In this document: positions 14,767 to 19,523 of the stretch, piece by piece
Layout of the letters: every line of letters starts with the position of its first letter
Numbering within the stretch: position 1 is the stretch's first letter
Origin: Thermoanaerobaculia bacterium
Lineage (GTDB): Bacteria; Acidobacteriota; Thermoanaerobaculia; UBA5066
Direction of reading: 5' to 3'
DNA: 64,000 nt
Assembly: GCA_022071945.1 (NCBI GenBank)
Contig: JAJVIN010000041.1
Span: forward strand, 1 to 64,000
The notes under the pieces: model-generated
Told to the model about the DNA's origin: nothing
Databases searched by the model: none
The model's input: only the letters and a program-made list of their open reading frames with translations
Made by a program: the position numbers and the translations under genes

Positions 14767-17700
14767 TCACCTCACCGGCCCGAGGTACTTGTCCAACCAG
14801 GCGAGCGTCTCCTTGACGAACTCGTTTCGTGGCGGTATGTGGTCGGTGTCGTAGAGAATGAGCTTCTTGTGCTCGGGCCGAGTCCCGAGCATGTCGAACG
14901 TCGGCCGGATCGCGTCGTCGATCGCCCGGTCGTACCGACCATTGAGCATCAGTGTCGGCGACTTCACCCTCGTGATGTAGTTGATCGGGCTCGCGGGCGG
15001 AAGAGCGGGCGCCCCCATCATCCCCCCGGCGACGAGCACGTTGACCTTCACACGCTCTTCAACGGCCGGAATGATCGTTCCCAGCACCCCGCCCCAACTC
15101 ATTCCGTAGTACGCGATCTTCCGGCTGTCGATGTCTTCTCTGGTCTCCAGATAGTCAACTGTGCGCCGGAAGTCCTTGACGAGCTGAGTCAGGAACTCGG
15201 TGTAGGCATGAGATTCCGCTCCGGCGTGAATCGGCACCAGCGCCGGGTCCCCGCGCTCGAAAGTCCCCTTGTAGACCGGGTACAGAACCGCGCGGCCGTT
15301 CCTTACGAGGAATGAGAGAAACATCGGGAACTCGTAGTAGGTCTCGATCGACTTGCTCGATCCTGCCCACGTCGATGCACTTCCCGGGAAGTAGATCACC
15401 GGCTGGAACGGCGGCTTCGAGCCCTTTGGCAGGAAGAGATATGCGACGACACGCTCGCCGCCATAGGCGGCATCGAAGCTCACTTTCTCCCGAACCCAGC
15501 CTCCAGGGCTGTCGACACGCTCTTCAACTCTCGGGTGGAGATCTGTCCGGTCGTACGCGAATTGCCCCTTGAAGACCTGAAAAATCGCGTCGTCCACGGG
15601 TCGAGCGCTACGAAGGCTTGCTGGCGCGGGGAGTGCCTCCGGCTGCAGCGCCTTCGCAGGAATCTTCGCCGGCTCGAGATAGAGCGCGCAGCGGAACCCG
15701 TTCGCCGCGGAACGATCCATCGCGGGTGCCTGCCGCAGCGACCTGAAGTCGTATGTGTTCCCGTTCCATGCGCCTCCACGGATGATCCTTCCTTGCGGAG
15801 CCTCGTTCCAGCACCATTCCCTCACGTTCCCTGCCATATCGAATGCACCAAAGGCCGTAATGCCCCCCAGGCTCCCCACCGGCATGGTCCCCTTGCCGCC
15901 AAAATTGTGGAACGACGCAAGGACTGCATATCCTCCAAGTTGCGGGAACTGAACCATCGGCGTGAACCCACCGCTCGCGACTCCCCAGTGAATCCAGGAG
16001 GGCAGGGTCTTGCCTGCAAACTCGGCGTACGCTGCCGCCTCATACCAGCTCACCCCTGAGACGGGATGCTCAGCCTGTCCCTCGGGGTAATCGCCCGCCT
16101 GCCAGGTCGAGGGGCCGGGCAGAGCCGTCTGGTCGACGAACTGCGCGATTGCATCCTCCCAGCTGAGCTCGGCACCGCTCTTTACAATCGGATGCTTCCA
16201 GTAGCCCCTGTCTCGATATCCGCCCTTGTCGATGAATTCCTTGAACTGCCTGTTCGTGACCTCGTAGCGGTCGATGAGGAAGTCGCCCAACATGCCTCGC
16301 GGAGTCTCAGCACCCTGCACGCGCACCATCCCGGGAGGAATGCCGCCCTTCTTGTCGAGCGTCCTGACCAGGTCGTACGGAGCGGGAACCCCGACGCTGC
16401 CCGCCGTTCGCCTCATGTTCCAGCTCGAGGCCGCGGCCAGCACAGTCTCGTAGCCTTCCTTCTCCAGCCTCCAGCGGAAGACCCCGATCGGAACGCGAAG
16501 CCTCTCGATCGGACTCGTGCCGGCCTCGACCCACGCGCCATCAGGCTCGCCGTACTCCTTCATGAAGACTGTCGCTCCCGGAGGGTCGGTCCTGACGTTG
16601 ATCTTCAGCGAGCACTTCGAGAACAGCTCGGCCAGTTTCGGGTCGTCTGGGATGATCTCCTCCACTTTCTCCGCCAGTCTGTATGGGGCCGACAGGTTTC
16701 TCCAGACGTCGTTCTCCTCGATCATCCGCTCGATCTCCGGTAGCGCCACACCTCGCGCCCAGTGCACTCTCGAGCGATGCCGGTAAGAAACGACCCCGAG
16801 CACAACAAGACCGAGACACAGCACCGCCACCGGGATCGCGAGCTTCGGCCTCGCGAGCGCGCGCACCAGCCTCCTGCGTGCGCCGGACTCGCCCGCCGCA
16901 AGGGAGCGGAGTTCCCGCGTCACCTCGGCCACCGAGAGGAATCGCTTCTCCGGATCCTTCTCGAGGCATCGGCTGACGATCCGCTGCAGGGCGGGAATGC
17001 ATGGCCCGCCACTCGCGACGATTGGCCTTGGATCGTGCTCGAGGATCGCGGCGATCAGCCGGGCCTTGGTACCGCCGTGGAACGCCCGCTTCCCAGTCGC
17101 CATCTCGTAGAGAATCGCGCCCAGCGCGAAGATGTCGCTCCGTGCGTCGGCCTCGCCTCCCTCGATCTGCTCGGGCGCCATATACGGCAGCGTCCCGACG
17201 ATGGCACCTTCGGCCGTCAGCGGCTTGACCGGTGACACTGGTGTGCTGGGCTCCGGCGACGGCTCCACGGCGTAGAGCCTCGCCGTGGCGTCCGACACGC
17301 TCGCTTGTTCAGGCTGCGAGGGTGGCTTGCTCGGCCGGCCGCCCCCGGAGTCGATTGCCTCGAGCACCGAAGCGATTCCCTTCGCCAGGCCAAAGTCGAG
17401 CAGTTTGACGCCACCGGTCGTCGTCAGCATGACGTTCGCCGGCTTGAGGTCCCGATGAATCACGCCTCGGCTGTGCGCCGCGCTCAGAGCCTCGCCAATC
17501 TGAACTCCTATCGCAAGCAGGTCGCTCAGGGGCATGGCGCCTCGCGCCAGGCGGTCGGCGAGTGTCTCTCCCTCGAGATGCTCCATCACGAGGAAGTCGG
17601 TCCCCTCCTGTTCGCCGATGTCGAAAAGCGTGCAGATGTTCGTATGACTGAGCGACGAGATCGTCTTCGCCTCGCGGTGGAATCGCTCGCGAAGCGCCGC

Positions 17701-18714
17701 GTCCTCCGAGAACACCGGGGCCAGGACCTTGATCGCGACTTTCCGGTCGAGACGCACGTCGCGAGCCGCGTAGACGTCACCCATGCCTCCGGAGCCGAGC
17801 GGCTCGACGACCTCGTAAGGCCCGAGGCGCGCGCCGCGCTTCATCTGCTCGCGCAGGCCCGACGGAGGCTTCCTCGCCCCCCGGCCCGCGCCCGACGACT
17901 CCGGCCTTCTGAACGCCTCCAGTTCCGCAGCGACGTCGGCCGCCGAGGCGATCCTCTGCAGTGGGTCCTTCCGGAGCATCCTCTTCACGAGCCGCTCGAG
18001 TTCGTCTGGCACCTCCGGGGCAAACTCCCGGACCGCCCGTGGATGCTCGTTGAGAATCACGTACGCCGCGGCCGCGGGTCCGTCGGCCTTGAACGGCCGC
18101 CGCCCCGTCAGCAATTCGTAGAGGACCACGCCTAGCGCCCAGATGTCGGCGGCCGGCCCCACCTCGTCGCCACGCAGCTGCTCCGGGGCCATGTACGCCA
18201 GCGTTCCCATGACCATGTCGGGCTTCGTCAGCGTTGACGTGCCCGAGGGCTTGGCCAGGCCGAAATCTAGAATCTTCGCGACGCCATCGGTCGTCACGAT
18301 CACGTTCGCCGGCTTGACGTCGCGGTGAACGATCCCCTGTTCGTGCGCCTTCGCAAGTCCCCGCGCGACCTGTTGCGCGAATTCCGCCGCTTCGCCGACC
18401 GTCATTCTTTCGTGCGCGATCTTCGCCTGCAGCGTGACACCCTCGTAGAGCGCCATCGCAATGAAGAGCTGGCCATCTCCGGTCTCGCCGATCTCATGAA
18501 CGGTGCAAATGTTCTGGTGGTCGAGCTTCGACGCGGCACGTGCCTCGCGAAGAAACCGCTTCCGCGCCTCCTCGTCGCGCGTCAACTCCGGCGCGAGCAC
18601 CTTGACTGCGACCGTCCTGCCTAACCTCTCATCCTCGGCGCGGTAGACGACACCCATCCCGCCACCGCCCAGGTATTGAATGATCCGGTAGTGTCCGATG
18701 GTCGTGCCGATCAT
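14767..18714 (-). CDS. Tandem Ser/Thr kinase fused to FGE-like and alpha/beta-hydrolase domains
   Basis: The 1315-residue protein contains two complete Hanks-type kinase domains. Kinase 1 (about 8-268) has GGGGMG, Lys38, HRDVKPAN with Asp132, and DFG Asp150. Kinase 2 (about 300-605) has GSGGMG, Lys329, HRDLKPAN with Asp422, and DFG Asp440, with a proline/serine-rich insert (about 455-500) between DFG and APEQ. A single membrane span follows (about 624-643). Outside it lie a PEGA-like segment (700-760), a formylglycine-generating-enzyme-like domain (795-1013; YEVTNRQF, HPVSGVSWYEA, DMAGNVREW, RGGAWN) and an alpha/beta hydrolase (1080-1315). The hydrolase has a visible triad: Ser1206 in GMSWGG, Asp1262 and His1292. 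Kinases should be cytoplasmic and the FGE/hydrolase part extracytoplasmic. FGE-like domains in such fusions usually act as binding modules. Single kinases with such tails are known in Acidobacteria; two active-looking kinases in one chain is unusual. Confidence 0.93.
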   Translation of the reverse strand: MIGTTIGHYRIIQYLGGGGMGVVYRAEDERLGRTVAVKVLAPELTRDEEARKRFLREARAASKLDHQNICTVHEIGETGDGQLFIAMALYEGVTLQAKIAHERMTVGEAAEFAQQVARGLAKAHEQGIVHRDVKPANVIVTTDGVAKILDFGLAKPSGTSTLTKPDMVMGTLAYMAPEQLRGDEVGPAADIWALGVVLYELLTGRRPFKADGPAAAAYVILNEHPRAVREFAPEVPDELERLVKRMLRKDPLQRIASAADVAAELEAFRRPESSGAGRGARKPPSGLREQMKRGARLGPYEVVEPLGSGGMGDVYAARDVRLDRKVAIKVLAPVFSEDAALRERFHREAKTISSLSHTNICTLFDIGEQEGTDFLVMEHLEGETLADRLARGAMPLSDLLAIGVQIGEALSAAHSRGVIHRDLKPANVMLTTTGGVKLLDFGLAKGIASVLEAIDSGGGRPSKPPSQPEQASVSDATARLYAVEPSPEPSTPVSPVKPLTAEGAIVGTLPYMAPEQIEGGEADARSDIFALGAILYEMATGKRAFHGGTKARLIAAILEHDPRPIVASGGPCIPALQRIVSRCLEKDPEKRFLSVAEVTRELRSLAAGESGARRRLVRALARPKLAIPVAVLCLGLVVLGVVSYRHRSRVHWARGVALPEIERMIEENDVWRNLSAPYRLAEKVEEIIPDDPKLAELFSKCSLKINVRTDPPGATVFMKEYGEPDGAWVEAGTSPIERLRVPIGVFRWRLEKEGYETVLAAASSWNMRRTAGSVGVPAPYDLVRTLDKKGGIPPGMVRVQGAETPRGMLGDFLIDRYEVTNRQFKEFIDKGGYRDRGYWKHPIVKSGAELSWEDAIAQFVDQTALPGPSTWQAGDYPEGQAEHPVSGVSWYEAAAYAEFAGKTLPSWIHWGVASGGFTPMVQFPQLGGYAVLASFHNFGGKGTMPVGSLGGITAFGAFDMAGNVREWCWNEAPQGRIIRGGAWNGNTYDFRSLRQAPAMDRSAANGFRCALYLEPAKIPAKALQPEALPAPASLRSARPVDDAIFQVFKGQFAYDRTDLHPRVEERVDSPGGWVREKVSFDAAYGGERVVAYLFLPKGSKPPFQPVIYFPGSASTWAGSSKSIETYYEFPMFLSFLVRNGRAVLYPVYKGTFERGDPALVPIHAGAESHAYTEFLTQLVKDFRRTVDYLETREDIDSRKIAYYGMSWGGVLGTIIPAVEERVKVNVLVAGGMMGAPALPPASPINYITRVKSPTLMLNGRYDRAIDDAIRPTFDMLGTRPEHKKLILYDTDHIPPRNEFVKETLAWLDKYLGPVR

Positions 18715-19404
18715 GAGGCACCCCTACGGCAGCACTGGCGTTTTGACGAGGTGAAGAGCCGCATGACCGAGGCCCTGACGCAGAGATGGGATTTGGGGCA
18801 GGGATAGACATCGCCGGTCCCGCTCGAACCGGCATTCGCTGGCATCCCTAACGGGCCGAACCGACTGCCCGCGGCGGCATCCATTGTGCGTATGAGTCTA
18901 TGCCTTCGGCGAGCGGAACTTACGAACTTCACTATGCAAGAGCCGGGGTGCTGAGGCCCGGCAGTTTCTCGCCAGATCGTCGCGAACTGAAAACTCTTGC
19001 GCTGTCGGGCACCCTTTCCCAGATGCATTGGCTCCGCCGGTCAATCCTCCGAGCCAGGGACGAATCGATGGTCCGCTGGGTACTGAGGTGTGGGGTACTG
19101 AGGGGTGGTGAAATGCCTCGGGACACCTGTGACAGGTGGGAGGTTTCATGCGTGCGCCGCAGATCGTCCGGATCGAGAAGGGCCAGTCGGCAGCCGGACG
19201 TCGAGAGTGCGCATCACGACCGAGCCGGGACGCGGTGCGCCCCCCTTTTCAGGGTCACCCCCCGAAAAATTGAGGCGGTCACGTGGCGGTAATCCGGCGG
19301 CAGAGGGCGGAAAAGGGCGGTTCGTCCCCCGAAACCGGCTTCCCGCCTCGGGCGGCAGTTCCCTCGGGCAAACGGAAGAGGCGGCCCGTAAGTGCTTGAT
19401 TCCA
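18715..19404. other. Gene-poor stretch with short repeats, possible mobile-element debris
   Basis: No gene recognised. Visible structures are a direct repeat GGGTACTGAGG near 19078-19105 and a perfect dyad CACCTGT-G-ACAGGTG at 19124-19138. The following 250 bases are G/C-tract rich and resemble decayed insertion-sequence DNA, but I cannot name a family. Confidence 0.4.
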
Positions 19405-19409
19405 AAGGA

Positions 19410-19435
19410 AAAGGGCCCGATATCTCGGGCCCTTT
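19410..19435 (-). terminator. Rho-independent terminator after tRNA-Gly
   Basis: Two perfect 11-base arms (AAAGGGCCCGA / TCGGGCCCTTT) flank a four-base loop. On the minus strand the hairpin is followed by TTCCTTT. It lies 14 bases past the tRNA 3' end, as expected for its terminator. Confidence 0.8.
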
Positions 19436-19448
19436 GTCGTTGGAGGTT

Positions 19449-19523
<75 letters not shown>

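What the first reader, a model, noticed from the sequence alone, without database searches (positions are those of the whole stretch)
14767..18714. One chain with two complete Ser/Thr kinases, an FGE-like domain and a hydrolase
Both kinase domains keep the glycine loop, Lys, HRD Asp and DFG Asp. One membrane span then separates them from a PEGA-like segment, a formylglycine-enzyme-like domain and an alpha/beta hydrolase with a visible Ser-Asp-His triad. This reads as a transmembrane receptor in which an extracellular enzyme or binding module could report to two cytoplasmic kinases that may activate each other. It stands alone between gene-poor flanks with no evident substrate gene.
Basis: partly seen in the sequence, partly recalled or inferred. 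Interest (0 to 1): 0.72.

Follow-up and report, generated by a model that had tools for sequence, protein, structure and literature searches.

The report
Two-kinase bacterial receptor with esterase-like sensor
This acidobacterial gene encodes a membrane receptor that combines a rare two-kinase signalling unit inside the cell with a widespread enzyme-like sensor outside it, and relatives carry the same sensor on other kinds of signalling domains, so bacteria seem to reuse it as a plug-in part.

Summary
In detail: one 1315-codon ORF at 14767-18714 on the minus strand, with two motif-complete Ser/Thr kinases, one membrane span, a weak PEGA segment, an FGE-like domain and an alpha/beta hydrolase. 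The claim of gene-poor flanks is wrong. The receptor reading gains independent support. The TM-PEGA-FGE-hydrolase sensor is widespread: 44 of 396 sampled genomes of the phylum carry it, and it also occurs in MAGs of other phyla. It is mostly joined to one kinase, but also to TIR domains, a ToxR/CadC-type winged helix and a weakly detected HTH. The Ser1206-Asp1262-His1292 triad is kept in every intact member aligned. No member checked has the FGE cysteine pair, so the domain is probably a lectin-fold binding module, not an oxidase. The hydrolase resembles acetyl-xylan esterases (Z 24.8). The two-kinase unit is not unique: a related K1-K2 cassette occurs in two other genomes of the class, joined to beta-propellers, TPRs or an independently acquired FGE-hydrolase sensor. 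K2 has lost catalytic motifs in three of nine cassettes; every readable K1 keeps them. The window gene looks like a recombinant of two modular families. Ligand, catalysis and cross-activation are untested. New variant of a known kind.

The parts
14767..18714 (-). CDS, 1315 aa: tandem-kinase receptor with FGE-like and hydrolase sensor
17920..18693 (-). Kinase 1 (K1, aa 8-265), all catalytic motifs present; belongs to the tandem-cassette K1 clade
16879..17826 (-). Kinase 2 (K2, aa 297-612), all catalytic motifs present here; belongs to a different kinase clade from K1
17215..17379 (-). Insert in the K2 activation loop (aa ~446-500), Ser/Pro-rich
   Evidence: sequence; matches split there
16780..16848 (-). 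Single transmembrane segment (aa ~623-645); most similar to the single-kinase sensor family, so probably inherited with the sensor
16612..16752 (-). Helical stalk (aa ~655-701) next to the membrane on the sensor side
   Evidence: predicted helices
16438..16605 (-). PEGA-like segment (aa 704-759), weak here (E 0.009), above cut-off in some relatives
15673..16338 (-). FGE-like domain (aa ~793-1014), C-type-lectin-type fold, without the FGE catalytic cysteine pair
14779..15618 (-). Alpha/beta hydrolase (aa ~1033-1312), nearest fold acetyl xylan esterase/cephalosporin C deacetylase
15097..15099 (-). Ser1206 codon, nucleophile in GMSWGG; in 56/56 members aligned
14929..14931 (-). Asp1262 codon, acid; in 55/56 (the other is broken at a contig edge)
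14839..14841 (-). His1292 codon, base; in 55/56 (the other is broken at a contig edge)

Best explanation
The gene encodes a single-pass receptor Ser/Thr kinase made by recombination of two modular families. The cytoplasmic half is a K1-K2 tandem-kinase cassette, so far seen only in a few members of this acidobacterial class. The other half (TM, helical stalk, PEGA-like segment, FGE-type lectin fold without oxidase cysteines, CE7-like serine esterase) is a widespread sensor that is also joined to single kinases, TIR domains and DNA-binding domains. Most likely working: the outer lectin-fold and esterase domains bind an acylated ligand, probably an acyl-ester-bearing glycan or glycopeptide; binding or turnover at the conserved Ser-Asp-His site changes the packing or dimerisation of the stalk and TM; this brings cytoplasmic cassettes together for activation, with K1 as the main catalytic kinase and K2 as a partner or modulator. 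Shown by computation: architecture, conserved motifs and triad, loss of the FGE cysteines, swapping of both halves. Inferred: topology, ligand class, catalysis-coupled signalling, division of labour between the kinases.
For: Both kinases have complete motifs. Single TM; charges weakly favour N-terminus inside (mean +3.4 against +1.7 over 56 sequences). Sensor with other N-terminal domains: TIR in L041/L042, Trans_reg_C E 2.5e-19 in L091, weak HTH in L212, single kinase in most. Cassette with other sensors: PD40 propellers in L170, L171, L172, L199, L200; TPR in L168, the nearest cassette at 69% over 608 aa; FGE-hydrolase in L141. K1s form one clade (SH-aLRT 99); K2s lie together in a clade of 96 that also holds one single kinase. 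Identity to L141 is K1 58%, K2 67%, sensor 40%, while the window's sensor is 65% identical to single-kinase proteins L048/L030; similarity switches near the TM. Triad kept in all intact members; FGE cysteine pair absent. Fold: CE7 esterases Z 24.8, EgtB FGE-type domain Z 21.6. NG86 dN below dS for K1 (0.28/0.81) and K2 (0.21/0.96) against L168.
Against: No experiment. Ligand unknown and no conserved neighbour gene hints at it (one search found only neighbouring kinases in Aminicenantes). Positive charges lie on both sides of the TM, so topology rests mainly on the N-terminal domains. dS is near saturation. K1 and K2 as sisters were not rejected by an AU test on the first tree (p 0.205). G421 is a fragmented assembly with about 5% contamination. 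The fold model does not place sensor and membrane relative to each other.
Confidence: 0.62

Rival explanations
1. The hydrolase is a working extracytoplasmic esterase whose job is metabolic, and the kinases report its presence or sense the membrane independently; tethering, not ligand sensing, is the point of the fusion.
For: The triad is invariant across 56 members over several phyla, as expected for a working enzyme; CE7-like fold.
Against: The same sensor is fused to TIR, winged-helix and kinase domains, which suits a signal input better than a tethered enzyme; the FGE-like domain has lost its own catalytic cysteines.
Confidence: 0.18
2. The hydrolase fold is a binding pocket only and the whole outer part is a ligand-binding receptor domain; catalysis is dispensable.
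For: Alpha/beta hydrolases have become receptors elsewhere (plant D14/GID1, bacterial RsbQ; own knowledge); FGE-type lectin folds serve as putative antigen sensors (PMC10907252, PMC7159879).
Against: GID1-type receptors lost part of the triad (own knowledge), whereas here Ser, Asp and His are kept in every intact member.
Confidence: 0.15
3. A recent gene fusion or mis-assembly with no selected function as a two-kinase protein.
For: No relative in the window's own family keeps the same combination.
Against: The frame is open across all junctions; the K1-K2 cassette recurs in other genomes with conserved order; dN below dS for both kinases.
Confidence: 0.05

Closest known systems
Single-span receptor Ser/Thr kinases with a periplasmic SUMF1/FGE-type domain (described for Planctomycetota, PMC11032199)
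   Same: Cytoplasmic Hanks-type kinase, one TM, outer FGE-type domain; reported there as the third most common accessory domain of such kinases
   Different: Here an invariant-triad esterase follows the FGE domain, there are two kinases, and the same sensor also drives TIR and DNA-binding outputs
Carbohydrate esterase family 7 (acetyl xylan esterase / cephalosporin C deacetylase)
   Same: Fold (Z 24.8, 264 residues) and Ser-Asp-His triad
   Different: Only 17% identity, part of a membrane receptor, activity and oligomer unknown
FGE / SUMF1, EgtB and pFGE (SUMF2)
   Same: FGE-sulfatase domain and fold (EgtB 4x8b Z 21.6)
   Different: No FGE cysteine pair; closer in kind to non-oxidase members such as SUMF2 (own knowledge)
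FGE-type C-type-lectin sensors of DGR and ternary conflict systems (PMC7159879, PMC10907252)
   Same: FGE-type domain proposed as sensor, in systems that include TIR and kinase domains
   Different: No diversity-generating retroelement or NTPase partner was noticed here; membrane-spanning single chain with an esterase
PknB/StkP-type PASTA kinases
   Same: Kinase domains and single-TM layout
   Different: No PASTA domains; the NCBIfam score above cut-off (590 against 450) comes from two kinase domains adding up

Membership tests
Hanks-type receptor Ser/Thr kinases | Complete kinase core motifs (Gly loop, Lys, HRD, DFG, APE) | tested here: met
   both kinases
Hanks-type receptor Ser/Thr kinases | Single TM between kinase and outer domain | tested here: met
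   one hydrophobic peak at aa 625; one strong peak in 52 of 56 relatives
PASTA kinases (PknB/StkP) | PASTA repeats in the outer part | tested here: not met
   no PASTA match in Pfam up to E 0.01
Formylglycine-generating oxidase (FGE) | Catalytic Cys pair in the C-terminal subdomain (human FGE Cys336/Cys341, own knowledge) | tested here: not met
   RGGAWNGNTYDFRSLRQAPAMDRSAANGFRC has no Cys before GFRC; no member aligned has the pair, a few have one isolated Cys
Formylglycine-generating oxidase (FGE) | FGE-sulfatase fold | tested here: met
   Pfam 2.9e-27; T. curvata FGE Foldseek 2.2e-11
CE7 acetyl esterases | CE7-like alpha/beta hydrolase fold with Ser-Asp-His triad | tested here: met
   geometry of the triad in the model was not measured
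CE7 acetyl esterases | Deacetylase activity and hexameric assembly | not testable with these tools
   needs biochemistry
K1-K2 tandem-kinase cassette (defined here) | K1 and K2 each grouping with the corresponding kinase of other cassettes | tested here: met
   K1 clade 99; K2 clade 96 including one single kinase L096
DGR-diversified FGE/CLec sensors | Nearby reverse transcriptase with template and variable repeats | not tested
   no dedicated search; none noticed among the genes examined around the ORF

The most novel reading that the evidence does not exclude
A catalysis-coupled receptor system: an invariant-triad esterase joined to a lectin fold works as an interchangeable outer sensor that drives kinase, tandem-kinase, TIR and transcription-factor outputs across phyla, with the ester-cleavage cycle itself as the signal, and with a dedicated kinase/co-kinase pair as output in this lineage.
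Probability: 0.25. Interest if true: 0.75.

Novelty: new variant of a known kind. Interest (0 to 1): 0.52.

Why it matters
The ligands of almost all of the roughly 100 receptor-like kinases in genomes like this one are unknown. A sensor that is itself an enzyme with a predicted active site gives a direct handle: assay esters, find the substrate, then ask whether turnover switches the output. Because the same sensor is wired to kinases, TIR domains and DNA-binding domains, one ligand could be identified through the easiest output (a promoter) and carried over to the others. The tandem cassette, in which one kinase decays in some paralogues, offers a bacterial parallel to the kinase/pseudokinase pairs of eukaryotes.

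Tried and rejected
Uniqueness of the tandem arrangement: held after the relatives and phylum scans, overturned by the class scan. Insertion of K2 into a family kinase from a native paralogue: first favoured, dropped because K1 groups with the K1s of other tandem proteins. Tandem duplication of K1: not favoured (lnL 22.75 lower) but not rejected by AU (p 0.205); two further AU tests did not finish. Foreign origin by base composition: GC and GC3 are near the window's, so nothing decisive, although the sensor is 65% identical to proteins of distant lineages and at most about 44% to those found in its own family and order. Plasmid location: no match in PLSDB. Conserved neighbour genes: none beyond kinase arrays in Aminicenantes. 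RNA elements in the upstream gap: only the tRNA; two other Rfam matches are below their gathering scores. Paper searches found no description of this sensor or of bacterial tandem-kinase receptors in the held library; subscription papers are mostly missing.

Full report
Observation. The ORF lies exactly at 14767-18714 on the minus strand and encodes 1315 aa. Pfam finds two protein kinase domains, FGE-sulfatase (E 2.9e-27), an alpha/beta hydrolase (DLH E 2e-5) and a sub-threshold PEGA. Both kinases have Gly loop, Lys, HRD, DFG and APE. K2 carries an insert of about 50 aa between DFG and the P+1 loop. There is one hydrophobic segment at aa ~623-645. The flanks are ordinary: tRNA-Gly 19449-19523, nth, tdk on one side, an AAA_14/DUF4143 ATPase on the other.

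Genome context. The window belongs to a 6.17 Mb genome, very probably Acidobacteriota. The phylum is inferred: a genome in the 'same phylum' sample, G137, has a contig of the same length as an Aminicenantes record and holds the same gene. One search lists 135 matching stretches in this genome, roughly 100 of them separate Ser/Thr kinase genes by my count. It also has a single-kinase + FGE + hydrolase paralogue that is cut at a contig edge (L002, 36-38% identical).

The sensor family. With the C-terminal 676 aa as query, 44 of 396 genomes across the phylum and 20 of 149 in the class (at a stricter threshold) have a match. Relatives also lie in MAGs labelled Aminicenantes, Caldithrix, Bacteroidetes, Ignavibacteriales, Gammaproteobacteria, Planctomycetes groups and Gemmatimonadetes. 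In an alignment of 56 members Ser1206 is invariant, and Asp1262 and His1292 are missing only where L002 is broken. The stretch RGG...GFRC, where FGE carries its cysteine pair, lacks the pair in all of them (a few members have one isolated Cys). The closest sensor sequences are single-kinase proteins L048 and L030 (65% identity, clade support 96), not proteins of the window's own family or order (43-44%), so the sensor half probably moved horizontally or through ancient paralogues.

Structure. AlphaFold2 on an 18-row alignment gave mean pLDDT 83.7 for aa 655-1315. The hydrolase matches CE7 acetyl xylan esterases and cephalosporin C deacetylase (Z 24.8 over 264 residues), with S9 peptidases next (Z about 21); the FGE-like part matches the FGE-type domain of EgtB (Z 21.6). 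I did not measure the geometry of the triad in the model; the claim that it assembles rests on the fold match and on conservation.

Swapped outputs. Most members have one kinase, some with an N-terminal zinc ribbon. Two gammaproteobacterial members have TIR_2 instead (E 9e-14 and 3.5e-16) and a Bacteroidales member a weak TIR match (E 0.011). One acidobacterial member has a Trans_reg_C winged helix (E 2.5e-19). Another has an HTH seen only weakly (HTH_23 E 0.002, HTH_17 E 0.0075, both below cut-off). A hydrophobic span separates the N-terminal domain from the sensor (in the winged-helix member it is weaker, 1.56). A DNA-binding domain, a TIR domain and a kinase all act in the cytoplasm, so the sensor should lie outside; net charge at the two ends of the TM agrees weakly.

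The tandem-kinase cassette. A scan of the class found a second tandem-kinase + FGE + hydrolase protein, L141. Against the window its K1 is 58%, K2 67% and sensor 40% identical, and its sensor is nearest to other proteins, L074/L023/L084/L075 (47-51%). The K1-K2 unit (aa 1-615) as query matched three of 149 class genomes across both kinases: the window's, G421 with several copies, and G038 (for the phylum sample). These copies end in PD40 beta-propellers (L170, L171, L172, L199, both L200 proteins) or TPRs (L168). The nearest cassette to the window's is L168 (69% over 608 aa), with a quite different outer part. All K1s form one clade (99), and the K2s sit in another (96) that includes one single kinase of the window's genome, L096, itself followed by a propeller-like sequence. 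The switch in similarity lies near the TM, which resembles the sensor family's more than L168's. The simplest account is that a cassette was joined to an FGE-hydrolase sensor at least twice. Genomes G471-G474 carry a different tandem pairing, with a K1-like kinase second.

Are both kinases working? In the window all motifs are present. In three of the nine K1-K2 cassettes K2 looks damaged: L199 lacks the Gly loop and has HRDLRLAN, one L200 protein has HGN and the other HRN in place of HRD. Every readable K1 is intact. Against L168, NG86 gives dN 0.28/dS 0.81 for K1 and 0.21/0.96 for K2, so both are under constraint in that comparison, with the caution that dS is near saturation. I therefore think K1 is the core kinase and K2 a partner that is still catalytic in this protein. 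Cross-phosphorylation between bacterial kinases has been tested before (PMC4166321, abstract seen), so mutual activation is plausible but not shown.

Mechanism and novelty. The best reading is a receptor whose outer lectin-fold and esterase domains recognise, and perhaps cleave, an acylated ligand. That the triad never decays argues that catalysis matters. Kinases with an outer SUMF1/FGE domain are known from Planctomycetota (PMC11032199), and FGE-type lectin folds are proposed antigen sensors in conflict systems (PMC7159879, PMC10907252). I found no description of the FGE-esterase sensor, of its swapping between kinase, TIR and DNA-binding outputs, or of tandem-kinase receptors in bacteria, within a library that lacks most subscription papers. 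This is a new variant of a known kind, not a new category.

Noticed in passing
L088 / L031 (Aminicenantes contig DIXU01000020): Run of at least six receptor-kinase genes on one strand with overlapping or nearly touching ends, alternating FGE-hydrolase sensors with TPR-type sensors on closely similar kinases.
   Followed up: partly
L041:1287-3875, L042:5347-7998: TIR - TM - PEGA - FGE - esterase proteins in gammaproteobacterial MAGs: a TIR receptor with an enzyme-like outer part.
   Followed up: partly
L202, L203, L204, L205 (genomes G471-G474): A second, different tandem-kinase architecture, a kinase followed by a K1-like kinase; the one scanned with Pfam (L203) ends in PD40 repeats.
   Followed up: partly
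L139:1127-5533 (G493): 1469-aa member with kinase, TPR block, then TM and the FGE-hydrolase sensor: two sensor types in one chain.
   Followed up: no
L002 (G000:C7:95-3103) and G000:C50:156-374: Paralogue of the sensor family in the same genome that appears split between the ends of two contigs.
   Followed up: no
window 19403-19451: GC-rich inverted repeat followed by a T run directly after tRNA-Gly, probably its terminator.
   Followed up: no
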